DNA from: a virus
DNA length: 25,613 nt
Strand: one strand, 5' to 3'
Virus record (IMG/VR): IMGVR_UViG_3300005528_002115
Location: 1 to 25,613 of that record
Every line of letters starts with the position of its first letter. Position 1 is the stretch's first letter. Positions 1 to 17,800 of this stretch are shown piece by piece. The notes beneath the pieces are model-generated. The model saw only the letters and a list, made by a program, of their open reading frames with translations, was not told the origin of the DNA and made no database searches. A program made the translations under genes and the position numbers.

Positions 1-3000
1 GCTTCATCATGCATTGATTCATTTACATCACCATTAACTGCAAATCTTGATGCTTCTGTTAATGGATTAGGAGTTGTCTCTACTAAATACATACCATTTC
101 CTAATTTATTAATAGGACGATATTTAACCACTGACTTATCTAATGTAACATCACTTCCAGTTGTATCTGTTATTTTAATTCTTTCATATAAGTTAAGCTT
201 AAATCTTTCATCAAATGGTAATTTATCATTTTTCGTATCAACTCCATCAACAGGAACATACATTTTAATATACTGATTTCTAGCAATATTTCTATCACCT
301 CTTATAACAAGCAGACCATTTTGAAGGTATTTTGCAGAATACTTTTGTTTAGGAACTATTTTATTGTTCTTATAGTTATTCTGATGAAAAGTTTTCCACA
401 CTTGATCTACATTTACAACATCTGGTGAATTAGCATAATTTTTAAATATATCTGCTGTTAATCCTGCATACAGATTAAGTGGTAACACTTTTGTAAATGT
501 TACAGGACTAAGCTGCACACCAGATTGCAAGATAGCTAATCTAGCTAAATTATCAATAAATTCTTTTAATTCAAAATCACCAATCATCTCAGCTTGAGAA
601 TATAATATGTCAATAGACTCACTTATAACATTAACATCATAAGATGACATTTTATTATTAAACATCTTAATGTTATCTGTACTAAGTCTATTCTGATTAA
701 TCACTGGGAATAAGTTCTTAAGAGCTAAGCTATCAGGATACTTATCCTTCATCCTTTTAAGACGTTTAGCCAAAGACTCGTTTTTACCATCTGTAAATAA
801 GTTGAAATATTGGTTAAGTCTTTCATTATTTCCAAATGGTGTATTCTGTAATATATATGCAATAAAGAAGTTTTGGTATCTATTAAGATATTCAGCTTTA
901 TCTTCATTGGTCATAAATATACCATCGTCATCAAGCTTTTCTAATATAGGCTCAAATGCAGGTAGAGATTTAGGATTAAGAACAACAAAGAATTTCTCAA
1001 ACATATTACGCACATCATCTTTAACTTCCTTCACCTTTCCTAAGAATGTTTTATCAAACACTCTATCTAATGAATCTTGTTTAATAAAATTATCATTAAC
1101 AGCACGATTATATCTAGATTGTTGTAAATGACTCTCAACTATGTTTTTAGTTTTAGTTGTATCATAAGATATACCTCTAATAAAGTTTGATAATTTATCA
1201 GCTTGTGTTTTATAATCAAGCATATCCATAAGAATAGCCACTTGCATTAAGTTCTGTTCTTTTGTAAGTGTTTTACTTGATATTGCTTCTGCTAATTGTT
1301 GAGGAGTATATTGTTTGAATTGTTGTTGAATACCTCTAAATAATGCTAATGTTTTATCTGGATATTGTGTTGTATCAATAACATTCCCAGTTCCTTGTGT
1401 GTAATAAAGAGAAGCTGCTTTAATTATCACTTCGTTAAAATATAAGGCCTCATCATTCACTTCATTAACAAATGTCTTATTAGCATCTCTATATTTAAAG
1501 TAATCATCTATAACAGGTTGATTAAACATCAATGCTATATTCTCTTGAGACACACCACGTTTTGTTAAATAAAACCACGTAGCAGCAGTTTCTAGATTAA
1601 GACGTATATCAAATATAAATGGATCTTTTGCAGCATCCACTGATCCTGTAAGAGCTTCATTAAACAAGTCAAATATATACATTCCATCTTCATCTACTGT
1701 AAGATCTAGTTTATTTGTATTTGAGTTTGGAAGTTTAATTTTCACTTGTCTAGTAGTACCATCATAATCTTTATATGTACCTGTTAACTCCACCTCACCA
1801 ATTTGACTCATTGTGTGTGATGTAATCTGCAATGCTGCTACACCCACCAATTGTTTTGATGTTACAAATGTTTCACGCGTTTCTGACATAGTAACCCATT
1901 CAGAAAGCTTAGTCATATTTGTGTCATCTCTTTTTATTCCTTTAAGCTCAAGAATATATTCAGATAGTTTTTTAAGTTTTGAAGCACTATTAGGAGTAAG
2001 AAGCTGACGTTGATTATCAGGATGTTCAAGAATTGTCTTTATTATTTCAATCACCCTATTTTGTAATGCCTTTTTACTATTTTGGTCTTCAATAGATCTT
2101 TTTGAAAACTCTTGCAAACTATCTTTTGTAGTAATTTCAGTTTTAAGAGCATTGTAGTCATCTGCTGCTTTATCTAATGCCACTGATAAAGCTTCAACAT
2201 TTAACTGATTCATTTTTAATTCTTCATCAGCTAACATTGCTTGTTGAATATTTTTAATCTTTTTATTAAAAAGATCAGAAACTAATTTTCCTTCAATAGC
2301 ATTACCTTTATAAATAAGCTCTTCAAAATAATATAATTCTTCTTCTAATTGTTTTATTTCTTTAACACCTGTTCTTATTTCTTCTTTTAGATTATTAATA
2401 ATATTTATTACAGGTTTAATTATATCTGCATATTTATCATTAATGTATCTATTATAACGATTGTTTAATTCATCTGGTGATGAACTATATTTAATGTATT
2501 TAATCTCATTAGTTTTCTTACTAATATAGTAGTTAGCTAAAAACATATTGAGTTTATCCACGTCAAAGTCAGATCCTGTTTTACCTACCATTTCAGAAGG
2601 AACAACCACCATATCTCCATATGAAGGATCTAAGAATCCTTTAATAACAATAGAGTCAATCATATTTAACCCTGATGTAGGAATACGAGAACCTATAGAA
2701 TTTAATAAGTCAGCAAAATCTTTACCTTCAGGAGCAACCCAAATTCCTTCTTCGTTTTGCACAAAGCCAGCTTCTTGTGGTGTAATTCCTTTAAAGTACC
2801 AAGGAGTGTACACTTCAATGTATCTACCGTAATCAGTATTATAGAAGTTAAGATTACTAGAAGATATTGTAACAGATTCTTTTTCTTTCTTTGAAAGTTT
2901 AGAGTAATCCTCTACATTTTGATACACTCCGTCTTTTATATAAAGTAGCTTTCTACCCTGAGCAAACAATGTAGATGACACCTGAACATTAGCCTTACCA

Positions 3001-6000
3001 AACATTTCTGTTCTGATAATTCTATTGTCAACTAGTGAATTTAAAACAGATTCAATACGTTCTCTAGCTGGGTTTGCATCTAATGGATATTTTGGTACTT
3101 CTTTATTATCATCTATAAATGTATCAAGCATTTCAACCACATTGTCAGGAAGATTTCTTTTTATAGCTTCTTGACGTAATGTTTCCATTAGTTTTCCAAC
3201 ATTCTCAATATCGTATGAACCATCTTCATTTTGTTTTAATCCAAGCTCTTGTAAAAGAGCTTCTCTTTCAATATCTAATAAAGCATTTAATACATTTTTG
3301 TATTCTTCTGCATAAGGCTTAAGACTTTCAGGAAGATCACTTAGAATAAGTTTTCTTATCTGGCTACCAAAGATTACAACATTTTTAGCATAGTCAGGGG
3401 TAGATACCTGTATACCAAAATATTTACTGAATATATCTTGCAGGATGGGAACTTCTTTAGATATAGTTCCATCTTCATTATAAAATGGTGTAAGCTTTCC
3501 ATTAGGTTTAGTCATTGCACCCACTTTATGTCCTGATCCAAAGTCAATAATATCAACACCTTGATTTTTAGCATCAATATATTTAGACATCATCTCTGGA
3601 TTGTTCTTCACTCTACTCCAAGTTAAAGGAAACACTGAGTTTTTAAGGAAATTAATATGGGACATTCCATCAGTGTTTTGAAATCCAAAACCTTGTGGTT
3701 TTAACACTTGAAGAATAGCTTCTGGTTTTGGTTTACTAAGAACTTCTTTAGCTTTTTGAATTTGTTCTTTAGTGTATTTAGGATTATAATAAGGATGAGA
3801 TTTATCAGAACGATCAATTATTTCTAAAGCATTTTCATAATCCAATAATGCTTCTTGTTCTTTTGATAACATTCCAGATAGATATAACATATCTCTAAAA
3901 TAATCAGGCATAATCATTGCTTGACCATCAGCTTCATCCATATTAATATATGAACTAATATATGTTCCTTTACCCCCTACTATAGATTTAAGAGAACCAT
4001 CTTCATTAAACTTAGCACCAATCAATTGCTCTGCTCTTTTCTTATCAACCTTAGTAGAAATATCTTTGAACAATTCTTCAGCAATATATTTTAAATAAGG
4101 ACTTGTCACCTTTGGATCAGCATAAGATATACTTCTCATTACAGGATTATCTGCATCACGAACTCTACCATCATAACGAGGTTTGTTTTGTTCCATCCAA
4201 GAAATAACATGAGGATTTTCGCTTATAACATTCTTTTGAGAATTAGCACCACTAGAACGTTTAGCTAAGTCTTTATATAATGCAGGATGACCATAAAACA
4301 ACTTATGTTGCTCATATACAGCAAGTTGTCTATTTACAACGAGGAATCTAGCAAGTTTGTTAAACTCCGCTTCACTCATTTCTTTAGTGTTAATACCAGA
4401 TATAGCATCTGCATCTTTTGGAATACCAAGAGCTTTAAATCTGTTTAGCACATTTATAACAGTGACCCCTGCATCAATTTCAACAGTTTTAACTATTTCT
4501 TTATTTACCAACCATTGTTTTGTTTCCTTCACTTGAGATTCAACATAATCTTTTAATATACCTTCATTCTTTACCGTGCTAACAAAGTTTTCTGTTAATG
4601 CTTCAAATATTAATGTAGCATTTTCAATTTTTGTTCTTTTAGTTATTTTAGTATCCTTAACAAGTTTTTCAAAATAATTACGAAGGTTTGATCCTTTCTC
4701 TAGTCCAGGGATATTAGAAAAATGTCCAAGCTCAAGTATTCTATCTTGATGATTCTGAATATTATTAGGATAGAAATGAAATCTTAAAGCATGCATCACC
4801 TCAGCTTTAAGAGCATTGATATACTTATCTTCAATTAAACCAAGATTAGATATCTCACTCATTTTTACAAAGTGACCCATTTTAACTGCAAACTCACTAG
4901 ACTTATCTGAATTGATTACAGTGAAATAAGATCCTCTTAGTATGTGATAGATTTCTTGAATAATCTTATCATTAAAGTTAAGTTTATCAGTGTTCTCACC
5001 ATCGCTTTCACGTTCTGCAGCCATACCTGATATATACTCATAATCTATTTTAACACCTTCTCTTTTTCTTCCCTTAGCATCAAATACAATACCACCAGGA
5101 GAAAGTATTTCAGACGTAGAGTTATATGGATTTAACTTTATAATATCCCCAACCACTGTACCATATTGTGGGTTGGACATAATAAACTCTTCTAAAGTAT
5201 TTGCACTATTAAGAGAATGCAATACATAAGATATTTCAGAAGGAAGTGTAATAGCATACTGAGTTTTACCATCAGCAGTTTGGTGAGAAAGCAATGTATC
5301 TTCTGAACGGAAGTTTAGTTCTAATTCAAGAAGAGCATTTAAAGGACCACCTATTAAATCAGTTCCAAATAAAGAATCATATTTAATAGTTTTATTATTT
5401 TTAACAGCATCTTCTAATACATATTTTAAACTATTATATGCATTCTTAATTATATTCTTATTAGTCTCAGAAAGATTTTCTGGTTTAGTAGATAGACTAA
5501 TACCTAATGCATTAAACGCACCTAAATGTCCTTTTACATCAGAAGCACCTAAAATATATGTAAGTCTTGGACTACTTAAGTTTATTTCAATTGTATTAGC
5601 AGGACTAATATAAACTATTCCACCTGTATCAAGTTTTGAAATATCTACTTTGTATGCCTTCTCTTTAATACCATTTCTCCACTCTTCACGTATCTTTTCT
5701 TTTGTATTAACGCTTACAGCATTAACGTGACGTATTTTACCATCAGCACCTACAATAATTTTAAGAGGATTATTTCTGTTTCTTGTAAAAGAAGTTTCAA
5801 ACGCTACAAGAAGACGAACATCATCATCAGAAACAATACCACCATTTTTTAATGTATCATATTTAAGTCTTGATTTTAAGTTCTCAATCCACTGATATCC
5901 ATCCTTATATCTAAATTTATAAATGGGATCTTTAAACTTCTTATCAAGCTTATTAAACATTTCTTCTAATGCACTAGTCTTTTTAAACGTACCATCTTCT

Positions 6001-9000
6001 TGCTTTCTCATCATTGGTACAACGTCAGAAAGTTCGTTAAGAAGAATATTCATTTTACGTTTATAAGAAACAAGAGAAGGAAGATTTAACTTATTTCTTA
6101 CATCACTAACTTTTCCTGATTCATCCGTTTTATTATCTGGAAGAGAAAGAATAAGAAGTCTTACAGTGGGGTTAGTTAAACTAGTAGGATCTACATATAT
6201 AACATCTCTAATCCCTAGTGTATTAGCATTTTCTTCTTTTGCTTCTATTTCAGCAATATCTTCTTCAGATTTCTTAACATCTTCAACTTGTTTAAATTTC
6301 AAGCCAAACTGAGAAAGGTAATTTTTAAATTGCTCTTTAACTTCTGTATTATATATTTCGCTATTTAAAACACGTTCTTTTTGAAAATAAAGATTGCTTG
6401 CAATTTTTTGATCTTCAGCTATTCTATATTCTCTATATTGATTTATAAATTCAGTTTGTACTTCAGGAGATGCATATTTAAATTCATCTCTTTGCATTAC
6501 ATCATTTAACCCTGGCATAAACCTGTTAAATATTGTAGACCAGCTAGCTTTAAACAAATCTTCAAAAATGTTATTGTCTTCATCAAACATTTTTTCAATA
6601 GTATATCCCTTAGCTTTATATGATTCATTATTAAGTTTACTAAAGAATATAGCTGTCAAGCCTTCCATAAGTTGCTGTGTAAACTCTACAGAGGTTCCAC
6701 TTACAGAAGCGCGATTGTGTTTAACAGAAGGATCAAAGTTTTGTAGTGGTGTAGCATCTTTAAATTCACCCTTAGCAATTTGACCAAATAGTTTTGTAGT
6801 TTCATCTTCTATCTCAGCCACCTTTTCTTTGGTTAATCCAAGAATCTTTTTAAGCCAATTCCAGAGTCTTCTAAAAAATGTGTTTCGTTTAGGAGATTCT
6901 GCTTTTACTTCTGTACCTTCTTTAAGCATGTATTCTCTAAACTCTTCAGCAAGAGCTTCTTTTATAAGTCTTTTTTCATCTTGAGTTTTGTAGTTTGCTA
7001 CAGCCCACAGATAAGAAGGTTGTGACTTGTAATCTTTTCTTTTCTTATATTCATCTATAAGAGCTTGTTGTTTTTCAGGAGATAGATATGCATTCCATAC
7101 AGCTTCAAAAGCTTCGTGGAAACCTGTACCTTCTTCAGCAAACTTATACATGCGAATCATTCCATTAACGAATTGACCCATGTATTTACCATCTACTAAT
7201 TCATCTAATATATCTAATGGAATTTGAGGAAGCACCTTACTAAGCCACTCTTTAAACTTAGCAATATCTTCTGTTTTAGTAGCAGCTGTTATTTCACCCA
7301 CCCTTGCATTAGCATCATAATCATCTTTTGGCTTAGCTTGTTTAGCCATATCCAAAAGATTTTGAGCTGAAGTTTGAGCTGATACTTGTACCTTACTTTT
7401 ATATTCTAAGTTTAATTGTTTATTATATTTGGTAGTGTATTCTTCTTTTGACAAAGGTGTAGCACCTTGAGACCTAGCTTCACTAACGTAGTCTTTATAT
7501 TTCTGATTTACAAAATCATCAAATGTAATACCACTAGCTGCTAGTGTTTTACCAACAACAGGTGCAGCTGTAGATTTTAAACTAATTGGTTGTTTAGATG
7601 CTAACGCTTTATTAATCAAATCTTGATCAAACAAAACAAACTCGTTTTGTAAAGCCCCATCTATAGAACCTATTTCAGCTTTAATGCCAAGGTTTTGTTT
7701 AAACTCATGTAGTGTTTCTAAAGAAGGTCTTGCTTGATTTTTCTTATTAATAAACTCATCTTCTGAAATTTTTCCATATCCAAACTTTCTATCTAATAGA
7801 TTTTCAGGAGATATCTCAATCTCAACTGTATATATTTCTTCTCCAGGATAAGGTTTATCTAGAGATAAGTACAATCCTTTACCTCTTTGAAATTGATTTT
7901 TAGAAGTAGGTCCAACTTTTTCAGTCCTATAAGCAACTATTCTTAAGTTTCCATTAGGTAAAACAGTTATTCCTGGTTTTCTTTCTATATCAGACGTTTT
8001 AGTAACATCATAGACAACACTTCCATCAGGATTTTCTATCTTAACAATAGTTGATAAATCTACTGTTACTCCTTTATTTCCTATACCAAGCTCATTACCA
8101 CTTAAAGATATTCTAACCGCAGACTCTCTAGTACCATCTGATAGAGTTACAAAGAACTGTCCACCTTCTCCTTGTCCTGCTTTTTGTATAGCAGCTCTCA
8201 CTTCTTTTCTTTTAGCTTCTACATTAAAGACAGGAGCTGTAGAAGCTATTTCATCTTTATACTTCTCATCAATTTGCTTTAAAACATCTTCTCTTGTATC
8301 TCCAATTAATTCATCAGCAGAAGCTCCACCTGGATCATCAGCAATAGCTCTCCATCCATCTGTTACTTTTTCTATAGATGCAATTGCTTTATTTTTTCTA
8401 GTTTGTGCATCAGAAACAGAAACTGGTGTTACAGGAGTAGATTGACTTGTAAGAACTTGAGCCACCTTAACATCATTAACTGTTTCTCCTTGTTTAGCGT
8501 ATTCTTCTATGCGAATAAATGTTTCTTTAAAACTATCTATCATTTCCAACTGAATAGATTTTCCCTGCGCAACAGTTTGAGAAAATTTATTAACAGCTTC
8601 AAATCTTTTATCAAATTCACCTTGATAGAAGTCTTTAACTTTTTGACCATTTAAATCTGCATTAGTTAGATCTTCTCCTTTTTCATCTATAACTTGAAAT
8701 ATTTCATATTTACCATTTTTATATTCAGTGTGTAAATACAATTCATTTCCATTTCTACGTCTAGTTACAAATGTAACTTTACCTTCTTTTGGAATGTTGT
8801 TTTCAATATTATAAAATATAGATCCATCATCTGCTCTTACTTCTTTTTGATATAAAGAATATTGCTTAATGCTTTTTGGTGTTGTAGTGGGTTGATCACC
8901 AGCAGCTTGTACAGGTTCTGCTACAAATCCTGAAGCATCATATTTAAAATAAACATTTTTAAGTTGATAGTTTTGAGCCTCAGTTTTATTTTCTGAAGGA

Positions 9001-12000
9001 GATGTGTATGGTTTAATATTAGTGTATAACACTGATCCACCAGGTCTTTCAGCTAAAAGATAATGTTGATAGTTAACATATTGTTTTCCTCTAACTATCT
9101 TACCATCTATCACTTTAACATCATAAAATGACTCTGTTTTGTTCTTATCATTTAATAATGTATTATTAACTTTATGATATTGAAGAGCTTCTAATATTTT
9201 ATCTCTATTTTTTTCTATAGAGTCAGCTGTAAATAAAATATTAGTAGAGCCAATATTTAATCCACTCTGTACAGATAGTTGAAAAGGACTTGGTTTTTTA
9301 CCTTCTTGAACAGGAGACCAATATGTAACACCTTGCAAATATCTTAAAGCTGTTTGAAACTCAGCAAGTTGCTCTTCATTAAGTCCTAATTCAGAATTCT
9401 TTTGAATGAATAATTCTGAAAGTCTTTTTAATATATTAATTACATTCTCTTGTTCTTCTGCTGTAAACTTACGATTGTAAACAACAATAGGAGGTTCACC
9501 AGGTCTAACAACCATGGCTCTACCTGCTTTCACCCTAGTATCGTTCTTACTAATTACAATTCTTACAGGTCTACCATCAGGATGTTTAAGATTTGTAAAA
9601 TCAGGATTGTCTTCTATAAGTCTACCTTCTAAAGAAAGCTCTTGAGGACGTTGAGGTGTAGGATTACCATCTTCATCATAACCACCTACCAATGGTTCTC
9701 TATTATATATACCAGGACTTTTATCAATAATAGGTAATACAACTGTTTCACCAGCTTTTACCTTTTCTTTAATAGCATTACGTACTTGTTTAAAATAAGT
9801 TGCAAATGCTAACGCTTGTTCTTTTGTTACACGATTCTTTTGTGTTTTCTTATCGTATATAGCAAAGTTATCTTTTAACCACTCATATGTAGCATCAGCA
9901 TCATCACCTAACAACTCTTTACTACCATGCATTCCTGTATAAACCATGTTCTCTTTAGTGGGATTTTCAAGTATGTTCCCATCCATTCCAACTGGTTTAA
10001 AATTACCCATTGCATCTCTTCTAACAACAACTAGTCTAATATCATCCTCAAATCCTTCAGATCTTAATTCTTGAAACTCCTTTGAGTCTTTTGTAACAGG
10101 CATTAAATAAAACACAGACCCATTCTCATCACTAAGTTTAGCTGTTTCACTAAATTTAAAAAATCTAGCTTCTTGTGGTGATGTAATTTGTGTATCATTT
10201 TTATCAGCAAAATGCCTACCTGCTGTTTTAAATAAAGCATTCTCATCTAATATAGGAGCAAATGCTTCCATTTGCTTAAATGTTTCTGCTTCTTCTTCAC
10301 TACCAGGTGCAATATCTATAATAGGTTCTGTACTAAAAAGAGCATCTACTCCTTGAATCATTTCATCTTTTACAGGAACTGAATTTGGTTTTGTTATTAT
10401 TTTATTTCCTTCTTGTTTTATTATTCCTTCTTTTTGTTGAATTAAATTATAACCAAGAATAATTCCTTCTTGAACAGCTTGAAGCATTCCAATTCTTTTT
10501 TCAAGAGCTGAAATTTCACCTCTCTGTTGATAGGCTAAAGTGAGTCTATCATATCTATCTTGAAGATATCTAGCTTGTTCCAATAACTCTTTAAGTTCCT
10601 TTTTAGAATCAACCACTCTATCTACTAATTCAAATATATAAGCCAACTCCATAGAGTCGCCATCATTTAATGAATTAATAATATTCTGAATTGTTTTTTT
10701 ATTATCAGCATCTTTCTCTTGTCTTTTCATTAGAACAAGCTGATTAAGAAGCTGTTTTTTATCGTTTATACCTGCAAGCGTATCAAATAAATCTGTAACA
10801 CGATTAATTCTTTCTAATAGTTTATTAGAATAATCAATCATGTTTTGAAGAATAGATATTCTTTCATTAACTAAATCTAATTCAAGTTCAGTTTCATCAA
10901 GCATACCACTAATTTGATCTGTAGTAATACCTCTTGATGGTTTAATTATTTCTTGTTGCTGAGCTTCATTTAATCTTTCTTGTTCAGATGTGTAAATTTT
11001 ACCATCAACCATTGTAAATGGTTGACCAGATTGTTCAATTTCTTCAATACCTTCAAAATAATATTCTAAAAGTTGATTTAGTACATCTTGTTGTTTTTGT
11101 AACTCTTGACTTTGAATTTGTAAATTCTCAATTAATCGCTCAGCACTTTGAACAAGATTTATCAATACCTCTTTACGTTGTTCAAGTTCAATTCTCACCT
11201 TAGACTTTCTACCTCTTACATAAGGTTTATTTTGAAACTCTTCTTCAATTAATTCTATTTCAGCAATATAATCTTCTAATTCTTTTTTAATTTTATTATA
11301 TTCTTCTTCATTTTTATTTCTATCTACCAACAATTTATCACTCTTAGACATAACATCTTCAAGAGCTTCATTTAACATTTTTAATTGCGACTGTCTTCTA
11401 GTTTCTGTTCTTCTACTAACAACTTCATCTTCACTTTCTGTTATATCTAAAACATCTTTTTTATTACTAGCATATTTTTTTAGATATTCTGCATTATAAT
11501 AAATAGATTCTTTAACATTTCTTACAGGGTTTATATAAACAATTTTTAAAACATATTCTCCATTTTCTTTAATTAATTCTAAACGAGCTTTAACATTTAT
11601 TCCTGTAGAACTAAAATCTTTGTTAGCATATTTACCTTTTGTATAATGTGGTTTACCAGTCTTTTTAAATACATTTAGATCAAATACAACATCTCTATTT
11701 TTAAAATATATACGTTCATGATCTGTCATTGAACTTAATGGATAAAGTTTTCCTATTTGTGAAAACTCATCCACTGACATTATTATCACTTCTTTTTCAT
11801 CATTATATGTAAAACTAATACCTCTATCATCAATAGATACAATTTTAATTATATCTTGATCATATTGTATTACTGGTACTTTTCCTTTATATATACGTTT
11901 TTTAGGACTTGATTCAGTTATATAATTCTCACCTTCTTTTATTTCAAATGTTACTTCTTTACCTTCTTTGTCTTTTGTAACAATTGTTGTTACTGCTTTA

Positions 12001-14783
12001 GGTGTATCATCTTCAACTCCAGCATTTTTTTCTATTTCTTTTAAATGCTCCTCTAATTTCTTTTTCTCAACAGCTATAATTGCATCAGTTATTCTTTCTT
12101 GCATTTTAGCAAACTCAATTGGATTGGCCAATTTATTATAAGCATCAATATATTCTTTATTATCTTTATTTAATTCAATATAGTCTAATAAATTAGTATA
12201 TATTTCATCCAACTGATCTTCTTTAATTACAATATCAATTTTAGATTCTTTATTTTTAGAATTTAAATATGTAACTAAAGCTTTTTTAGCTTTATCAGAT
12301 TTTAACTTATCTCCGCGTTCCATGTTAGCTAACTGAGAATAGTTTTCTTTCCATTCTTCTAAACTAGCTAATTGTTCTTTTTTTGCTTCTATTAAATCTT
12401 TTGTTGCATTGTCTTTTGTTTCTTGAGACTCTAAATTTTTAATCTCCATTTTTAGAAGATCTATTTCTGCCTCTGTATTTTTAGTAGCGCCAATATTTCT
12501 AAATGCTATAGCTGCTGTAGATCCTAATACAGGAACACCAGCCATTTTAACTTGCAATTCTCCAGCGCGCATTGTAGCTTTTCTAGCTTTGTAATCAACT
12601 GTGGCAAGCACTTCAATAGCATCATCCAAAGCTCGTTTAGCTCTTAATGCTGTTTTTCTCTCAGGTGTACCTTCTTTATAAAGTTCAGGAATAACTAAAT
12701 CACCAAAACGATTTTTTAAATCTCTCCATGTTTTATGAAAATCAATAACATTATCAGCAATCTTATTAAAGAATTCTTTAGTTGAAGCTACGTTTTCTTC
12801 TGTCTTATCAAATCCAAAAGCTTCTTTAAATTCATTATCATTAAAAGCATCCCCGTAGGCACGAATTGTTTCAATAACACCATCAATCATATCTGTCTTA
12901 ATAGCAGCAGATATCATTTTAGCAAATGCTGAATCTTTATTATTATGAAAAACATATGCATCTCTATTAGCAATAGCCTCTTGCATATTTTGTGCAGTTT
13001 TGTTCTGCACTTTGACATTAGCTATATGCTCAGGTAGATACTTATTAGGATTTTCATAAAAAGCATTAAGGGCTTGAATACTTTCTGTAAGTTGTTTTTT
13101 TCTTTCTTTTACTTGTAGTGGATCACTGCCTATTTTTTCTTTTGCTTTACCAACAGCAAAATTAATAGGTGATAACAATCTACCTGTTAAAGCACCCATT
13201 AAGAATGTCTTTAAGCCTTGTGTACTATACTGTTCTTTAGCAGCTTTACTTATGTAGTCAGTTAATTCAGAACCTTTTGCTCCATGATACAAATCATAAT
13301 AATAATCTTGTAAAGCTTTATTTGATGTTTCTTGAAAAAGTTCTTGAATACCTTCACTTGCTTCCCATTTAAATACATTTCTACCTACAGACTTAGTTGC
13401 TTCCCAAGCTGCTTTTTTAACACCAAAATCTTTAGAAATTTCAGAAAACAAACCTAAAGTTCCTAATGTACCTTTTTCATACACTTTAGTTAATGATTTA
13501 CCAACACCTTCTTTTGCAGCTGCTTTACCAGAAACTTTTAAAACATCTTCAGCAAACTCAGAAGTTCCTTCACCTAACACTTTTCTACCAAAAGAAAACT
13601 TGGTAAATAAGTTATCAAATTGAAGTCTATTAGCAAGCATTAAAATACCACTATTTACTTGAAAGTTATCAAATGCTGCATCTTTAGCTATTTGTTCTAT
13701 AGCAGTTAATTTATCAGGTGTAGGAGCTTCACCTGTTTTAAATAACTCTTCATCGTATAGTTTAGTATAAAGATCACCATATGTACCAGCTGCTTCCATT
13801 CTAGCTTCTGTCATTGCCATATTAGCTTCTGATAAGAAACGTCTCACCCCACCTAATCCAATAGCACCTAGTTGCAAAGCTCCAGCTCCTGCTTTACCAT
13901 ACTTAGCTAGTGCATATCCTGTATCAACAAATGGTATTATTTTACGAGCTCCTGTTACAAGAAACTCAGGAATACTATTTGACTTCCAAATAGGCGTACC
14001 TAATTTTACCATATCTTTGGCAATATCAGCTTTGGTAACTATTCTACCTGCCCACTTAGGAGCACTTAAACCAAGTTTAGCTACTGAAAATTCTGTAGAT
14101 AAACCTAAAGTTAAAAGTTCTTCAGAAAGAAATTGACCTATAGTTCCAAGAGCAAATCCTGATTGCTGAAGCATGTCACCAAAAAACTTCCTATTAAATA
14201 TGCCTTCTTCATATTCAGGTAAATTATAAATGGCATATTTATTCATTATTTCTTTAGTAGCTCTATCTTGCTCTAATAAATCTTCAGGTGAACCTATTAA
14301 ATCTGTTTTAGCTTCATCCCAATTTGTACTCCATATAGCATCAATTAGATTACCCCATCCTTTCCATCCTTCAACAAATGTATTCCCAGCAAGTTTAAAC
14401 ATTCCTGTTAATCCATTACCCCATACATCACCCCATGTTTGACGTTTAGCATATGCAAATTCATTTTGAGGACCAAGATATGGATTATAACCAAGTTGGG
14501 CAAAGTCACGTGTATTACTAGTATATCTCTCTACTTGAGATCTATCCCAATCAAAAAATACAGGAGCAGCCATAGCTGTGCCTGAAGGTGCTTTATTTTC
14601 AAATGATTGCAAACCTTTTTCTACTGGATCAAGTTGAGCTGGTGGTTGATATCCAAAACCATCGTTAATACTAGTATTAATAAGATCCAACATATCTGGA
14701 CCTCTATCTGGAAGTGGAAGTTCAGGCTCACTTAAATATGCACCTTGTAGTTGTTCAGGAATTATACCAGTACCAAAATCCAT
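1..14783 (-). CDS. Giant crAss-like virion RNA polymerase polyprotein (C-terminus beyond window)
   Basis: This is one open frame of 4927 complete codons starting at ATG 14783-14781 (MDFGTGIIPEQ...). I read every codon to the left edge and found no stop, so the C-terminus lies outside the window. The start follows the previous stop by 19 nt. Order of parts: hydrophobic/Gly-rich segments near residues 203-228, 293-318 and 518-551; charged helices and coiled coil near 1120-1440; a zincin-like HEAFE site at 2556-2560; and, near 4033-4076, RxPT followed by DFDVD. The last matches the catalytic double-psi barrel of two-barrel RNA polymerases and the DFDxD loop of the crAss-like virion polymerase (phi14:2 gp66, about 2,200 residues). 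The family role is transcription of early genes from incoming DNA. Here some 2,700 extra residues lie N-terminal to the part that size would predict, so the product is a fusion or polyprotein. It contains no cysteine. The polymerase assignment is strong; the roles of the other parts are inferred. Confidence 0.9.
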   Translation of the reverse strand, partial: MDFGTGIIPEQLQGAYLSEPELPLPDRGPDMLDLINTSINDGFGYQPPAQLDPVEKGLQSFENKAPSGTAMAAPVFFDWDRSQVERYTSNTRDFAQLGYNPYLGPQNEFAYAKRQTWGDVWGNGLTGMFKLAGNTFVEGWKGWGNLIDAIWSTNWDEAKTDLIGSPEDLLEQDRATKEIMNKYAIYNLPEYEEGIFNRKFFGDMLQQSGFALGTIGQFLSEELLTLGLSTEFSVAKLGLSAPKWAGRIVTKADIAKDMVKLGTPIWKSNSIPEFLVTGARKIIPFVDTGYALAKYGKAGAGALQLGAIGLGGVRRFLSEANMAMTEARMEAAGTYGDLYTKLYDEELFKTGEAPTPDKLTAIEQIAKDAAFDNFQVNSGILMLANRLQFDNLFTKFSFGRKVLGEGTSEFAEDVLKVSGKAAAKEGVGKSLTKVYEKGTLGTLGLFSEISKDFGVKKAAWEATKSVGRNVFKWEASEGIQELFQETSNKALQDYYYDLYHGAKGSELTDYISKAAKEQYSTQGLKTFLMGALTGRLLSPINFAVGKAKEKIGSDPLQVKERKKQLTESIQALNAFYENPNKYLPEHIANVKVQNKTAQNMQEAIANRDAYVFHNNKDSAFAKMISAAIKTDMIDGVIETIRAYGDAFNDNEFKEAFGFDKTEENVASTKEFFNKIADNVIDFHKTWRDLKNRFGDLVIPELYKEGTPERKTALRAKRALDDAIEVLATVDYKARKATMRAGELQVKMAGVPVLGSTAAIAFRNIGATKNTEAEIDLLKMEIKNLESQETKDNATKDLIEAKKEQLASLEEWKENYSQLANMERGDKLKSDKAKKALVTYLNSKNKESKIDIVIKEDQLDEIYTNLLDYIELNKDNKEYIDAYNKLANPIEFAKMQERITDAIIAVEKKKLEEHLKEIEKNAGVEDDTPKAVTTIVTKDKEGKEVTFEIKEGENYITESSPKKRIYKGKVPVIQYDQDIIKIVSIDDRGISFTYNDEKEVIIMSVDEFSQIGKLYPLSSMTDHERIYFKNRDVVFDLNVFKKTGKPHYTKGKYANKDFSSTGINVKARLELIKENGEYVLKIVYINPVRNVKESIYYNAEYLKKYASNKKDVLDITESEDEVVSRRTETRRQSQLKMLNEALEDVMSKSDKLLVDRNKNEEEYNKIKKELEDYIAEIELIEEEFQNKPYVRGRKSKVRIELEQRKEVLINLVQSAERLIENLQIQSQELQKQQDVLNQLLEYYFEGIEEIEQSGQPFTMVDGKIYTSEQERLNEAQQQEIIKPSRGITTDQISGMLDETELELDLVNERISILQNMIDYSNKLLERINRVTDLFDTLAGINDKKQLLNQLVLMKRQEKDADNKKTIQNIINSLNDGDSMELAYIFELVDRVVDSKKELKELLEQARYLQDRYDRLTLAYQQRGEISALEKRIGMLQAVQEGIILGYNLIQQKEGIIKQEGNKIITKPNSVPVKDEMIQGVDALFSTEPIIDIAPGSEEEAETFKQMEAFAPILDENALFKTAGRHFADKNDTQITSPQEARFFKFSETAKLSDENGSVFYLMPVTKDSKEFQELRSEGFEDDIRLVVVRRDAMGNFKPVGMDGNILENPTKENMVYTGMHGSKELLGDDADATYEWLKDNFAIYDKKTQKNRVTKEQALAFATYFKQVRNAIKEKVKAGETVVLPIIDKSPGIYNREPLVGGYDEDGNPTPQRPQELSLEGRLIEDNPDFTNLKHPDGRPVRIVISKNDTRVKAGRAMVVRPGEPPIVVYNRKFTAEEQENVINILKRLSELFIQKNSELGLNEEQLAEFQTALRYLQGVTYWSPVQEGKKPSPFQLSVQSGLNIGSTNILFTADSIEKNRDKILEALQYHKVNNTLLNDKNKTESFYDVKVIDGKIVRGKQYVNYQHYLLAERPGGSVLYTNIKPYTSPSENKTEAQNYQLKNVYFKYDASGFVAEPVQAAGDQPTTTPKSIKQYSLYQKEVRADDGSIFYNIENNIPKEGKVTFVTRRRNGNELYLHTEYKNGKYEIFQVIDEKGEDLTNADLNGQKVKDFYQGEFDKRFEAVNKFSQTVAQGKSIQLEMIDSFKETFIRIEEYAKQGETVNDVKVAQVLTSQSTPVTPVSVSDAQTRKNKAIASIEKVTDGWRAIADDPGGASADELIGDTREDVLKQIDEKYKDEIASTAPVFNVEAKRKEVRAAIQKAGQGEGGQFFVTLSDGTRESAVRISLSGNELGIGNKGVTVDLSTIVKIENPDGSVVYDVTKTSDIERKPGITVLPNGNLRIVAYRTEKVGPTSKNQFQRGKGLYLSLDKPYPGEEIYTVEIEISPENLLDRKFGYGKISEDEFINKKNQARPSLETLHEFKQNLGIKAEIGSIDGALQNEFVLFDQDLINKALASKQPISLKSTAAPVVGKTLAASGITFDDFVNQKYKDYVSEARSQGATPLSKEEYTTKYNKQLNLEYKSKVQVSAQTSAQNLLDMAKQAKPKDDYDANARVGEITAATKTEDIAKFKEWLSKVLPQIPLDILDELVDGKYMGQFVNGMIRMYKFAEEGTGFHEAFEAVWNAYLSPEKQQALIDEYKKRKDYKSQPSYLWAVANYKTQDEKRLIKEALAEEFREYMLKEGTEVKAESPKRNTFFRRLWNWLKKILGLTKEKVAEIEDETTKLFGQIAKGEFKDATPLQNFDPSVKHNRASVSGTSVEFTQQLMEGLTAIFFSKLNNESYKAKGYTIEKMFDEDNNIFEDLFKASWSTIFNRFMPGLNDVMQRDEFKYASPEVQTEFINQYREYRIAEDQKIASNLYFQKERVLNSEIYNTEVKEQFKNYLSQFGLKFKQVEDVKKSEEDIAEIEAKEENANTLGIRDVIYVDPTSLTNPTVRLLILSLPDNKTDESGKVSDVRNKLNLPSLVSYKRKMNILLNELSDVVPMMRKQEDGTFKKTSALEEMFNKLDKKFKDPIYKFRYKDGYQWIENLKSRLKYDTLKNGGIVSDDDVRLLVAFETSFTRNRNNPLKIIVGADGKIRHVNAVSVNTKEKIREEWRNGIKEKAYKVDISKLDTGGIVYISPANTIEINLSSPRLTYILGASDVKGHLGAFNALGISLSTKPENLSETNKNIIKNAYNSLKYVLEDAVKNNKTIKYDSLFGTDLIGGPLNALLELELNFRSEDTLLSHQTADGKTQYAITLPSEISYVLHSLNSANTLEEFIMSNPQYGTVVGDIIKLNPYNSTSEILSPGGIVFDAKGRKREGVKIDYEYISGMAAERESDGENTDKLNFNDKIIQEIYHILRGSYFTVINSDKSSEFAVKMGHFVKMSEISNLGLIEDKYINALKAEVMHALRFHFYPNNIQNHQDRILELGHFSNIPGLEKGSNLRNYFEKLVKDTKITKRTKIENATLIFEALTENFVSTVKNEGILKDYVESQVKETKQWLVNKEIVKTVEIDAGVTVINVLNRFKALGIPKDADAISGINTKEMSEAEFNKLARFLVVNRQLAVYEQHKLFYGHPALYKDLAKRSSGANSQKNVISENPHVISWMEQNKPRYDGRVRDADNPVMRSISYADPKVTSPYLKYIAEELFKDISTKVDKKRAEQLIGAKFNEDGSLKSIVGGKGTYISSYINMDEADGQAMIMPDYFRDMLYLSGMLSKEQEALLDYENALEIIDRSDKSHPYYNPKYTKEQIQKAKEVLSKPKPEAILQVLKPQGFGFQNTDGMSHINFLKNSVFPLTWSRVKNNPEMMSKYIDAKNQGVDIIDFGSGHKVGAMTKPNGKLTPFYNEDGTISKEVPILQDIFSKYFGIQVSTPDYAKNVVIFGSQIRKLILSDLPESLKPYAEEYKNVLNALLDIEREALLQELGLKQNEDGSYDIENVGKLMETLRQEAIKRNLPDNVVEMLDTFIDDNKEVPKYPLDANPARERIESVLNSLVDNRIIRTEMFGKANVQVSSTLFAQGRKLLYIKDGVYQNVEDYSKLSKKEKESVTISSSNLNFYNTDYGRYIEVYTPWYFKGITPQEAGFVQNEEGIWVAPEGKDFADLLNSIGSRIPTSGLNMIDSIVIKGFLDPSYGDMVVVPSEMVGKTGSDFDVDKLNMFLANYYISKKTNEIKYIKYSSSPDELNNRYNRYINDKYADIIKPVINIINNLKEEIRTGVKEIKQLEEELYYFEELIYKGNAIEGKLVSDLFNKKIKNIQQAMLADEELKMNQLNVEALSVALDKAADDYNALKTEITTKDSLQEFSKRSIEDQNSKKALQNRVIEIIKTILEHPDNQRQLLTPNSASKLKKLSEYILELKGIKRDDTNMTKLSEWVTMSETRETFVTSKQLVGVAALQITSHTMSQIGEVELTGTYKDYDGTTRQVKIKLPNSNTNKLDLTVDEDGMYIFDLFNEALTGSVDAAKDPFIFDIRLNLETAATWFYLTKRGVSQENIALMFNQPVIDDYFKYRDANKTFVNEVNDEALYFNEVIIKAASLYYTQGTGNVIDTTQYPDKTLALFRGIQQQFKQYTPQQLAEAISSKTLTKEQNLMQVAILMDMLDYKTQADKLSNFIRGISYDTTKTKNIVESHLQQSRYNRAVNDNFIKQDSLDRVFDKTFLGKVKEVKDDVRNMFEKFFVVLNPKSLPAFEPILEKLDDDGIFMTNEDKAEYLNRYQNFFIAYILQNTPFGNNERLNQYFNLFTDGKNESLAKRLKRMKDKYPDSLALKNLFPVINQNRLSTDNIKMFNNKMSSYDVNVISESIDILYSQAEMIGDFELKEFIDNLARLAILQSGVQLSPVTFTKVLPLNLYAGLTADIFKNYANSPDVVNVDQVWKTFHQNNYKNNKIVPKQKYSAKYLQNGLLVIRGDRNIARNQYIKMYVPVDGVDTKNDKLPFDERFKLNLYERIKITDTTGSDVTLDKSVVKYRPINKLGNGMYLVETTPNPLTEASRFAVNGDVNESMHDE
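2544..2699 (-). other. RNA polymerase catalytic double-psi barrel segment (RxPT...DFDVD)
   Basis: Within the giant protein, R4033-I-P4035-T is followed 37 residues later by G-S-D4072-F-D-V-D4076-K-L-N. Multisubunit RNA polymerase largest subunits carry the same layout: E. coli beta-prime has RAPTLHR followed by NADFDGD, about 35 residues from R to the first D. The three aspartates at 2568-2570, 2562-2564 and 2556-2558 should bind the catalytic magnesium ions. The middle V replaces the cellular G, as expected for the DFDxD form in crAss-like phages. The segment between (IVIKGF, then MVVVP) has the alternating beta pattern expected of the barrel. Confidence 0.85.
6927..7118 (-). other. Zincin-like metallopeptidase site with altered second ligand (HEAFE)
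   Basis: The sequence GTGFHEAFEAVW has H2556-E2557-A-F-E2560, and 49-58 residues later comes a helix EALAEEFREYM (E2609, E2613, E2614). Gluzincins have HExxH plus a downstream Glu, and zincin domains are known in large phage polyproteins, so position and spacing fit that family. The second His is Glu here, so either the metal site is unusual or the domain is inactive. No other HExxH was noticed in the protein. Confidence 0.5.
10460..11430 (-). other. Long coiled-coil region of the giant protein
   Basis: Residues about 1118-1441 are dominated by Glu, Lys, Leu, Gln and Asn in long helices with heptad-like Leu/Ile spacing, for example around ALEDVMSKSDKLL, LIENLQIQSQELLQ and SALEKRIGMLQ. A short break (residues about 1255-1285, with GQPFTMVDGK) separates two halves. 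It probably acts as a rod or oligomerisation segment between the N-terminal part and the zincin and polymerase parts. Confidence 0.55.
13130..14175 (-). other. N-terminal hydrophobic, possibly membrane-active segments of the giant protein
   Basis: Three stretches stand out from an otherwise charged protein: around residues 203-228 (GFALGTIGQFLSEELLTLG), 293-318 (AGAGALQLGAIGLGG) and 518-551 (LKTFLMGALTGRLL). They are Gly/Ala/Leu-rich and amphipathic rather than clean 20-residue transmembrane helices. An ejected phage protein that must enter or cross the inner membrane could use such segments. This is inference from composition only. Confidence 0.35.
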
Positions 14784-14802: not shown

Positions 14803-17800
14803 TTATTTTAAATTAATTCCATTTTGATTAAAAAACAAATCTCTACTAATTATTGAAGGCGACCCTCCTCCAGTATTTTGAGTATTTTTTCTATTTTTTA
14901 AATACTCTTCATACTTTTGTTGTAGATCAAAATTAGCTTTTAAATTATCATAGTAAATCTTTTGTATTTCAAAAACAATTTCATCAGGAGTTTTTTCTTG
15001 AAGACTAAATATTCTATCAGTAATTTGTCTTTCTTCAAGTCTTGTTCTCATTTCATTTGTTTTAGGATCTATTTCGTTTATACGAACATTATATTTTAAA
15101 TTAAGCCTCACTGTACTAGGCATAGATTGAGGTGTAGATCCATCTCTATCAGGAGTTAATGTAAAATTAAAACCTGTTGCATTCATCATATCATCAGATT
15201 TAAATTGCTTTCCTCTTAATAATGTTTGATAAATATAATATCCAGAATTCTTAGGCATATCACGTAAGTTCGGACCTAAACTAGGACTTCCTTCATTAAT
15301 TGCAAATACAAATTTTTTGCCAGCCAAATCTGTTAATTTTTCAGTTCCTAAAACAATTTTTGAACCATCAGTAATAGCTCCAAAATCTACAGATATATTT
15401 GCTCTTCCTGCTATTAATCCACCACCTGCTGTATTGTATTTAAAACCTCCAAAATACTGTTCTGTTTGTTTTTCATTTTGTTGCAGTTTTCTTATTGCAG
15501 CCATTTCAGGAATAGTAGCTTCTCTTATTGTTCCATTACTTTCTTCTATATAAACTTCGGCATTTGCAGGTTCTAACACTTCTTGAAAAAGAGCAAATGC
15601 TTTATCACCATCTCTTGTACTTTTTTCTGGATCAAATAAATAACTAAAGTTAGTCCCCACTTTACCTGTTTGACTTGAAAAAAATTGTAAACTGGGAACT
15701 ACTGAATTATATACTTTGTTATAGTTTTTTCTAAAATCCCAAGGTTCTCCAAATTTATCAGTAAAGTTATCTATTGTCTGTTTAAGTTTTAAAAGATCTT
15801 TTTCCTGTGCATAAAGAGTTTCTCCATTCATTTCAATTTGAATAGACTTTAAAGCTGTTGGATCTGTAGATACAGGTGTTTTATAACCACCAATAATTTT
15901 ATAACTAAATTTATTATTAAAAATAGCTTGAGCTATTGCTTCAGGTTTAAGTTTAATATTAAACATATTTGGTACCTGAATTGGTAAATTTGCACCTATA
16001 ATTGGAACACCAGCATAAGTAGTAAACGTAAAATCTTTAAATGCTTTAACTTCAGATATTTGTGCAAGTTTTTCAGAAGTTAGTAACTCATATGTACCAT
16101 CATTTTTTTTAGTAAAATATTTATTTGCTTCTGCTGGATTTGTTTTTGCATATTTATCTAATATTTGTTTTCTATTTTCTTCATTAGCCAAATAAACTTC
16201 TAGGTTTGTTTTAGCAACGTTATAATTAATTAATGCTTTTTGTTCTTGAGCTGTTAACATAAAATCTAATGGTTGAGGTTTTCCATCTGCACCAATATGA
16301 TTTTTAGCCTCATCCATTCTATCTTTTAAATAACCCTGCGTATATGCAATTAAAGCATTACGCATTGTTCCTGGTCCTGTAAGTTTTGTTATACCAGCTT
16401 CTTTAACATATTTATTTTCAATAAGTAACTTTTCTAATTTTTTTGAAGCAGCAGCTTGCTCAGGTGTAAATTTATAATCAGGAGCTCCTGGATTAAACAG
16501 ACCACCTCTTAATTCATTATCAAAAGCTGATGAAATACTTGCTACTTCAGCATCAGTTAATCCTAAACCATTCTTTGCAAAATATAATAAACCATCAGGA
16601 CTAAATGCAAGATTATATGAACTATAAAAAAGTTCTTTTTGACGTCTATCAAATATTTCAGCAGCAGTTCCTTGTTCAATAACATTAGTTGTACCTAGTC
16701 CAAGATATCTACCACCAGTTACTGTTTCAATTCCTTTTATAGGTTCAGTTAAAACATTTCCTTTTTTGTCTACTAACTGACCTAATGCATTTGTAGTTAC
16801 ACCTGAAGATCCACCAGATCCACCAGATCCATCAGTTTTTTTATTAGGATTAGCTCTTTCCCACAAATCCTGGTCACGTTTCCACTCTGCTTCTTGTTTA
16901 TTTAACTCATAATTTAAAACATCTAAATCAAATTTTCTTTGATTAAGTTGGGCTTCTTGTGCTTTAAAATATGTTTCATTAGGCTTAATCTTTCTAGATT
17001 CTAATGAAGACACACCTGTAGACCAATTATCTACAAGACGTTGTTTAGCAAGTTTACCAAAGAAACCTTCAGGATTTAAAATAATATTGTTTTTAAGTTG
17101 GGCTTGATAATTTTTAGGAAAATTAATTTCGTATTCTTTATCTATAGCATTTGATTTTCCTAATAACTCAGCTTTTTGTTTTTGATATTGTAACGCAGCT
17201 TGTTGATATTCAGGAGTGAGATTTTTTGGAAGAGCGTTTAATAACCCATTAATTCTAGCAATTTCTACAGCTACATTATTTTTTCTTTTTTGATATCCTT
17301 TATCAAACTCACCTACTACATCATCAGCCATTTTTTCGTAAATCTGAGCATCTGTTAGATTAGGAAATTGATTTTTGTATTGTTTGTATCTTTCTTCTTT
17401 TTCCACTCTACCTGTTACACTAAATTGCTCATAGAAATTATTACCTATCATTGACTCAGCCCATGTAGCAAAATGTTTTTTAGATCTCTCTCCATTTTCT
17501 GTACTAATTAAATATGCACCATCAGCACTTGTCTCATCCCAAACTATTTTTAAACCATCTTTACCAGCAACTTCATTTAAATATTTTTCAATATTAGTAA
17601 AAGGAATAGCTTTACGCTTTTGTACTTTTGAAAAATCATCATCTGTTCTATTAGCATTAATCAAAACATCTAAACCGTTCTGAAGATCTTTAGCTACAAC
17701 ACCACTATATTGTTCTCTTATCTTAGGGTCATCACTATTTTTCCAACTTTCAAGAGTTTGAAATTCATTTTGATAAGCTTTGGTAAGTTGTGCATCTTTT

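What the first reader, a model, noticed from the sequence alone, without database searches (positions are those of the whole stretch)
2544..2699. crAss-like DFDxD RNA polymerase embedded at residue 4072 of a frame longer than 4927 codons
R4033-x-P-T and D4072-F-D-V-D4076 give both hallmarks of the catalytic barrel. The known relative, phi14:2 gp66, is about 2,200 residues with its motif roughly in the middle. Here some 2,700 additional N-terminal residues precede the expected polymerase start, and the C-terminus is still open at the window edge. A single polypeptide above 550 kDa combining membrane-like segments, coiled coil, zincin-like site and polymerase is unusual even for phages.
Basis: partly seen in the sequence, partly recalled or inferred. 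Interest (0 to 1): 0.75.

Follow-up and report, generated by a model that had tools for sequence, protein, structure and literature searches.

The report
Giant phage-carried RNA polymerase fusion protein
A crAss-like phage encodes its RNA polymerase inside a single protein of about 5,260 amino acids fused to a protease-like module; such giant fusions are common among its sampled relatives, but the protease-like site shows a paired two-residue switch that looks new.

Summary
In detail: R4033-I-P-T and D4072-F-D-V-D4076 lie in a minus-strand frame of 4,927 codons, which closes at 5,259 residues (597 kDa) in longer contigs. The polymerase call is right too. A profile of the window and 65 IMG/VR relatives finds phi14:2 gp66 (6VR4) at E 1.5e-163, and the AlphaFold model of the core matches 6VR4 at Z 23.2 and QDE-1 at Z 15.5. 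The extra N-terminus is explained: residues 42–904 match crAss001 gp47, 2508–2679 match gp47's zincin end, and 2824 onward match gp66. It is an in-frame fusion of two neighbouring virion-cargo genes. It is not exceptional: 147 of 191 distinct complete relatives (a capped sample, led by fused queries) have the fusion, three are longer, and a review gives crAss-like RNAPs of up to ~6,000 residues. The 'zincin' reads HEAFE, not HExxH. Among 171 relatives, 74 of 75 HExxE proteins have Lys/Arg just before the downstream conserved Glu; 82 of 96 HExxH proteins have Glu there. The two sites switch together in about 13 of 15 independent pairs, never oppositely. That switch is the new element. Overall: new member of a known kind.

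The parts
3..14783 (-). Giant ORF, 4,927 codons in the window (full protein 5,259 aa, 597 kDa; 332 aa lie beyond window base 3)
12072..14660 (-). Residues 42-904: counterpart of the N-terminus of crAss001 gp47 (and 56-867 of phi14:2 gp67), virion cargo
   Evidence: hhalign to gp47 26-834 prob 99.8, E 7.2e-29; to gp67 23-709 prob 99.4
6750..7268 (-). Residues ~2506-2678: zincin-like domain, counterpart of the C-terminal end of crAss001 gp47
   Evidence: 2508-2679 vs gp47 2100-2295, prob 98.5; model pLDDT about 90 around the motif, 74.9 overall; weak fold matches to metallopeptidases, Z 6.9
7104..7118 (-). HEAFE (2556-2560): HExxE in place of HExxH
6945..6962 (-). K2608-E2609-xxx-E2613: second-helix motif; K2608 is the position that switches with E2560
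6312..6746 (-). Junction region (residues ~2680-2824), where the separate-gene phages have the gp47|gp50 or gp67|gp66 gene boundary
3..6314 (-). Residues 2824-4927 (to 5259 outside): gp66/gp50-type virion RNA polymerase
   Evidence: phi14:2 gp66 195-1381 vs 2824-4093, E 8.1e-69
1284..4586 (-). Polymerase core modelled (residues 3400-4500), two-barrel fold
   Evidence: (pLDDT 85.0, pTM 0.83)
2676..2687 (-). R4033-I-P-T (R4033 and P4035 invariant in 66 of 66 rows)
2556..2570 (-). D4072-F-D-V-D4076, metal-binding catalytic motif
14803..18117 (-). 1,104 aa gene directly upstream; by position a cargo/ejection protein, no significant family match
18177..20732 (-). 851 aa gene; weak match to Flavobacterium phage Fpv1 gp31 (E 1.9e-5), a gene of the corresponding block
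20753..25612 (-). Large gene cut by the window end (1,836 aa in G002); peptidase/endolysin-like stretches

Best explanation
[quoted passage not shown] The first ~2,680 residues are the gp47/gp67-type cargo protein, ending in a zincin-like module. The rest is the single-chain two-barrel DNA-dependent RNA polymerase of the phi14:2 gp66 / crAss001 gp50 type. Shown here: sequence homology over both halves, the fold of the core, invariant R4033/P4035 and the three Asp, and the order of the neighbouring genes, with a gp49/gp65-like partner directly downstream. Inferred from relatives: the chain is packaged in the capsid, passes through the tail at least partly unfolded (N-terminus first, by analogy with crAss001 gp45), refolds in the host, and transcribes early phage genes independently of host RNA polymerase. 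Whether it is cut behind the zincin module is unknown.
For: A profile of 66 rows (window and 65 IMG/VR contigs; no phage record fetched by name) finds 6VR4 at E 1.5e-163; the next match is E 0.039. Model pLDDT 85.0, pTM 0.83. Foldseek 6VR4 E 1.2e-30, the only match at or under 0.001. VIA-align 6VR4 Z 23.2 over 790 residues, QDE-1 15.5, RDR2 12.5, P23-45 gp96 8.6. R4033, P4035 and D4076, none of them in the search pattern, are invariant in 66 of 66. N-terminal half: gp47 prob 99.8, gp67 prob 99.4. Zincin end: gp47 prob 98.5; polymerase: gp66 E 8.1e-69, gp50 E 1.4e-45. The downstream gene (1,608 aa from its first ATG) matches crAss001 gp49, phi14:2 gp65 and cr4_1 gp27. crAss001 gp47, gp49 and gp50 were detected in virions by mass spectrometry (PMC10172136, passages); phi14:2 gp65-gp67 are annotated from MS/MS.
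Against: No activity, packaging or intact-protein data exist for this phage. GSDFD[IV] invariance is built in by the search pattern. Residues 905-2507 of the giant have no convincing counterpart in gp47 or gp67. Major capsid, portal and terminase genes were not identified on the contig.
Confidence: 0.93

Rival explanations
1. Polyprotein: the fused chain is cut next to the zincin-like module, so the working polymerase is a separate ~2,500-residue protein as in phi14:2.
For: The natural gene boundary in separate-gene phages falls right behind the zincin module, and separate and fused forms coexist in the group.
Against: No cleavage site or cleavage is shown. The module here lacks the canonical second His. 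P23-45 gp96 is a precedent for a fused giant that bears an active RNAP (PMC10770324, passages).
Confidence: 0.3
2. The polymerase half is catalytically dead and acts as a structural ejection protein.
For: Extreme sequence divergence (mean column identity 19% in the 66-row alignment).
Against: R4033, P4035, D4076 and several Lys (K3695, K3714, K3753) are invariant in 66 of 66 rows without being in the search pattern.
Confidence: 0.04
3. The very long frame is an assembly or frame artefact joining two genes.
For: Some crAss-like phages have the two units as separate genes.
Against: The same polymerase part occurs in two other contigs, with 5,262 open codons in each. 147 of 191 distinct complete relatives have the zincin motif in the same frame, against 4 of 188 for a control interval. 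Alignments to cr4_1 and cr108_1 run across the junction.
Confidence: 0.01

Closest known systems
Cellulophaga phage phi14:2 gp66 (PDB 6VR4), virion RNA polymerase
   Same: Two-barrel single-chain RNAP, RIP[T/N] and GSDFD[I/V]DK motifs, alignable over 1,053 columns
   Different: 2,180 aa with the upstream cargo unit as a separate gene (gp67); here one chain of 5,259 aa; about 22% identity
crAss001 gp47 + gp50 (+ gp49)
   Same: Both halves of the giant and its downstream neighbour have counterparts; gp47 carries the zincin motif near its C-terminus
   Different: Three separate genes, gp50 and gp49 on the opposite strand to gp47; HEAFH in gp47, HEAFE here
cr4_1 gp26 (4,491 codons, in-frame TAG read through), cr55_1 gp70 (4,551 aa), Fpv1 gp33 (4,401 aa), cr108_1 gp54/gp53
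   Same: Polymerase core preceded in the same frame by a large N-terminal part; the homologous stretch runs across the junction in cr4_1 and cr108_1; HExxH at 2001 in cr55_1
   Different: Shorter; about 22-27% identity in BLAST alignments; no HExx[H/E] at the usual place in Fpv1; cr108_1 is interrupted inside DFDxD
p-crAssphage gp44 and Rudgehvirus counterpart
   Same: Same catalytic core
   Different: About 4,070-4,100 aa with the catalytic motif near 1,450: by annotation (p-crAss) and layout (Rudgehvirus) joined to the downstream unit, with the zincin unit in a separate gene
Thermus phage P23-45 gp96 (5,002 aa tape-measure-fused RNAP)
   Same: One giant virion protein with two-barrel RNAP, metallopeptidase and membrane parts (PMC10770324, passages); VIA Z 8.6
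   Different: RNAP at the N-terminus of a tape measure protein (DFDGD at 779); here it lies C-terminal to a cargo protein

Membership tests
phi14:2 gp66-type crAss-like virion RNA polymerase | DxDxD catalytic motif with upstream R-x-P | tested here: met
   (R, P and the last Asp in 66 of 66 rows)
phi14:2 gp66-type crAss-like virion RNA polymerase | Two-barrel single-chain fold alignable with 6VR4 | tested here: met
phi14:2 gp66-type crAss-like virion RNA polymerase | Homology beyond the barrels, in the N-terminal part of the polymerase | tested here: met
   (2824-4093)
phi14:2 gp66-type crAss-like virion RNA polymerase | Gene block: zincin/cargo unit, catalytic unit, gp65/gp49-like partner on one strand, replication genes on the other | tested here: met
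   (contig G002)
phi14:2 gp66-type crAss-like virion RNA polymerase | Packaged in the virion and active in RNA synthesis | not testable with these tools
   known for relatives only (PMC10172136, PMC10136315, passages)
Order Crassvirales | Signature structural genes (major capsid, portal, large terminase) | tested here: inconclusive
   Counterparts of Fpv1 gp30 (virion structural), primase, PolB, SNF2 and Sak4 found; capsid, portal and terminase not identified, but only 10 ORFs were scanned with PHROGs and only part of the named genes was used as query; contig linear and possibly incomplete
Zincin metallopeptidase | HExxH motif | tested here: not met
   HEAFE at 2556; E in 22 of 58 aligned rows (window included), H in 36
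Zincin metallopeptidase | Zincin fold with downstream Glu helix | tested here: inconclusive
   Model has strands, HE helix and E2609/E2613 helix; best VIA matches are metallopeptidases but Z 6.9, Foldseek none at or under 0.001
P23-45 gp96-type tape-measure-fused RNAP | RNAP at the N-terminus of a tape measure protein | tested here: not met
   Catalytic motif at 4072 of 5259, C-terminal to a gp47/gp67-like unit

The most novel reading that the evidence does not exclude
The zincin-like module of these virion RNAP fusions exists in two coupled states that have interchanged many times: HExxH with Glu just before the conserved second-helix Glu, and HExxE with Lys/Arg there. The window is of the second type. 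Because the first His, the catalytic Glu and the downstream Glu stay in nearly all fused proteins of both types, the HExxE type is more likely a retuned working site (another metal, or a gated one), probably carried into the host with the polymerase, than a dead one.
Probability: 0.4. Interest if true: 0.6.

Novelty: new member of a known kind. Interest (0 to 1): 0.4.

Why it matters
It adds a very divergent lineage, without a named phage in the tree built here, to the crAss-like virion polymerases. It shows that the cargo-zincin-polymerase fusion is a frequent form among sampled contigs rather than an oddity, with the separate genes of crAss001 and phi14:2 as the other form. The coupled HExxH/HExxE switch is sequence evidence that the zincin-like module is under selection, and makes its unknown role testable.

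Tried and rejected
Pfam and PHROGs scans and single-sequence phmmer against the PDB gave nothing significant for the giant protein; profiles and tblastn worked. The profile A1 also found 6VR4 but contained phi14:2 itself, so I do not count it. Pfam scan of 58 zincin rows: no family matched more than one member; PDB profile search for the zincin: best E 0.74. phi14:2 gp67, p-crAss gp45 and the Rudgehvirus zincin unit did not match the zincin-to-polymerase profile, so the zincin module is not shown to be homologous there. The N-terminal profile did not match cr4_1 or Fpv1 convincingly (prob 32 and 2; cr108_1 96.4). 'Record length' was rejected: L225 (6,070), L075 (5,677) and L198 (5,322) are longer.

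Considered and rejected: a window-specific invention, chance motif, assembly artefact. Sampling bias: each of the five scans kept at most 80 of 329-495 relatives found, ranked by likeness to a lead sequence, and all five leads are fused forms, so 147 of 191 is not a population frequency. In the 77-row tree 9 of 13 named phages tried were entered; DAC15, cr111_1, cr55_1 and cr116_1 lacked the motif spelling that I searched for (their variants).

For the HExxE switch: the aligned set A3 has 57 contigs and the window; of 69 candidate loci I left out ten duplicates and two doubtful ones, L089 and L102. In A3 all 22 E rows have K/R; the 36 H rows have E 33 and N, S, A one each. The automatic count over all scans gave 72 of 72 and 78 of 91 in 163 rows (one is the window's own copy L026), with 9 rows unresolved. 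Read by eye, 8 of these 9 could be placed, two of them against the rule: L089 is HExxE with Ala at the second site and His where the others have the conserved Glu, and L339 is HExxH with Lys. The count is then 74 of 75 E rows with K/R; of 96 H rows, 82 E, 5 K/R, 9 other. L251 stays unresolved. L102, counted as E with R, is probably a chance match of the pattern. Other columns of the same helix (2563, 2564) and column 2691 also track the H/E state, so clade signal is present. The trees are FastTree trees. HE was part of the pattern; as a check, 161 of 163 fused-length frames have HExx[H/E] in the right interval, while an interval nearer the catalytic motif has it in 4 of 188. No paper on this switch appeared in the listings (terms crAss+zincin; two of phage, HExxE, metalloprotease, 20 of 2,371 listed); this is a narrow search. 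Searches gave nothing nearer. Drobysheva et al. and Yutin et al. 2018 are not held; what I say of 6VR4 comes from the structure tools.

Full report
What is in the sequence. The minus-strand frame from window base 14783 to 3 is open for 4,927 codons and starts with ATG. DFDxD would occur 0.06 times in a protein of this composition, and 0 of 2,000 shuffles gave RxP[T/N] followed by DFDxD at a comparable spacing. The window is an IMG/VR virus record of 25,613 bases. Two other contigs, of 52.7 and 89.1 kb, hold the polymerase part at 100% identity over the 1,326 residues searched, in a frame of 5,262 codons. In the 89 kb contig the protein is 5,259 residues, 596.8 kDa.

It is a polymerase. Family and single-sequence structure searches found nothing significant. 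tblastn against 50,697 phage records found 139 records at E 0.01, among them crAss-like proteins annotated as RNA polymerase. In an alignment of the window and 65 contigs R4033, P4035, the GSDFDxD block and Lys at 3695, 3714 and 3753 are invariant; GSDFD[IV] was in the search pattern, the rest was not. A profile of these 66 rows finds phi14:2 gp66 (6VR4) at E 1.5e-163; the next match is E 0.039. The model of residues 3400-4500 has pLDDT 85.0 and pTM 0.83. Foldseek ranks 6VR4 first at E 1.2e-30, with nothing else at or under 0.001. VIA-align gives 6VR4 Z 23.2 over 790 residues at 4.0 A, then QDE-1 (15.5), plant RDR2 (12.5) and P23-45 gp96 (8.6).

What the extra N-terminus is. Profile-profile alignment puts residues 42-904 on crAss001 gp47 26-834 (prob 99.8) and residues 56-867 on phi14:2 gp67 23-709 (prob 99.4). 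It puts residues 2508-2679 on the zincin-bearing end of gp47 (prob 98.5), residues 2824-4093 on phi14:2 gp66 195-1381 (E 8.1e-69) and 2863-4098 on crAss001 gp50 (E 1.4e-45). The part between 905 and 2507 has no convincing counterpart there. The gene boundary of the separate-gene phages thus falls just behind the zincin module. The next gene, 1,608 aa from its first ATG (1,612 from a TTG that overlaps the giant by ten bases), matches crAss001 gp49, phi14:2 gp65 and cr4_1 gp27. The giant is a fusion of neighbouring cargo genes.

How usual it is. Of the 80 loci of the first relative scan, 69 have HExx[H/E] 1,250-1,750 residues upstream in the same frame, 54 of 60 among complete frames. Over all scans, 66 of 398 loci had no GSDFD[IV]D in an open frame; the other 332 gave 231 distinct sequences. 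191 frames were complete, and 147 of 191 hold the motif 1,200-1,800 residues upstream, against 4 of 188 for a control interval 300-900 upstream. Of the 44 without it, 35 have the catalytic motif at 1,270-1,480, as in the separate-gene form. The sample is capped and led by fused sequences, so this is no population frequency. Frames of 6,070, 5,677 and 5,322 residues exceed this one. Among named phages cr4_1, cr55_1 and cr108_1 have the fused form, and Fpv1 has it by position; p-crAssphage and Rudgehvirus have the catalytic unit in a long protein of another layout, joined to the downstream unit. Yutin et al. 2021 describe large multidomain proteins of the transcription block (PMC7886860, passages and part 1 of section 7). 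A review states RNAP genes of up to ~6,000 aa (PMC10136315, passages). So size and giant fusions are known.

Where it sits. In a tree of 77 polymerase cores (window, 67 contigs, 9 named phages) the window falls in a set of 10 rows that holds no named phage (SH-aLRT 99); by branching the nearest named phage is cr108_1, the only named one in the 62-row half of the midpoint-rooted tree. The habitat of the contigs was not available to me.

The zincin-like module. The motif here is HEAFE. In 58 aligned rows the fifth letter is H in 36 and E in 22; the residue before the conserved downstream Glu is K or R in 22 of 22 E rows, and E in 33 of 36 H rows, with N, S and A once each. In the automatic count over all scans 72 of 72 E rows have K/R, and 78 of 91 H rows have E, 4 K/R, 9 others. 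With eight further rows read by eye it is 74 of 75 E rows with K/R, and 82 of 96 H rows with E, 5 with K/R, 9 others. The one E row that breaks the rule, L089, has His where the others have the conserved Glu, as if two ligands had changed places; it is a single sequence. crAss001, cr4_1 and cr108_1 are H with E. On a tree from the polymerase core alone the H/E state changes at least 13 times; in 13 independent pairs the second site goes the same way in 11.7 on average and never the other way (p about 0.0005). With the eight rows added: 15 supported pairs, 13.3 the same way, none the other way (p about 0.0002). Among 380 columns tested, that second site is first in association with the H/E state and the only other column that separates it fully. 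HExx[H/E] is present in 161 of 163 fused-length frames. The model shows strands, the HE helix and the Glu helix; the nearest folds are metallopeptidases at Z 6.9, below the bar of 8. I read this as a metal site that exists in two matched forms. Loss of metal with a Glu-Lys/Arg bridge, or a retuned site, both fit; conservation of the first His and the catalytic Glu in a fast-evolving protein favours a site still in use. Zincins with substituted motifs are known elsewhere; there the second His is over-replaced by Lys, Arg and above all Leu (PMC3650047, passages).

How it probably works. crAss001 virions contain gp47, gp49 and gp50, thought to leave the capsid partly unfolded through the tail (PMC10172136, passages); the phi14:2 polymerase is active in vitro and has a role in rifampicin-resistant early transcription (PMC10136315, passages). 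By homology the fused chain is packaged, ejected and refolded in the host, where the polymerase transcribes early genes; N-terminus-first ejection is an analogy with crAss001 gp45. Packaging, cleavage and activity are inferred, not shown.

Verdict. The phage adds a divergent member to a known kind. The coupled switch in the zincin-like module deserves the follow-up.

Noticed in passing
L011 10483-22073 (cr108_1) and L111 7446-15730 (cr116_1): The catalytic motif itself is split: cr108_1 gp54 ends at the first Asp of DFDxD and gp53 resumes after it; cr116_1 gp51 ends shortly after GSDFD, before a small gene. Disruption at this motif is reported for zeta crAss-like phages (PMC7886860, passages).
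   Followed up: partly
window 20753-25612: Large gene (1,836 aa in G002) with L-alanyl-D-glutamate peptidase-like and endolysin-like stretches upstream of the cargo genes.
   Followed up: no
window 7104-7118 and 6945-6962: HExxE with Lys at 2608: coupled two-site switch across relatives, see report.
   Followed up: yes
L089: HExxE with His in place of the conserved downstream Glu: possibly two metal ligands with exchanged places.
   Followed up: no
L225 (6,070 aa), L075 (5,677 aa): Longer polymerase fusions than the window's; L075 has 2,640 residues after the catalytic motif, so it may also include the downstream unit.
   Followed up: no
L256, L268: The only two fused-length frames of 163 in which no HExx[H/E] was found at the usual distance.
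   Followed up: no
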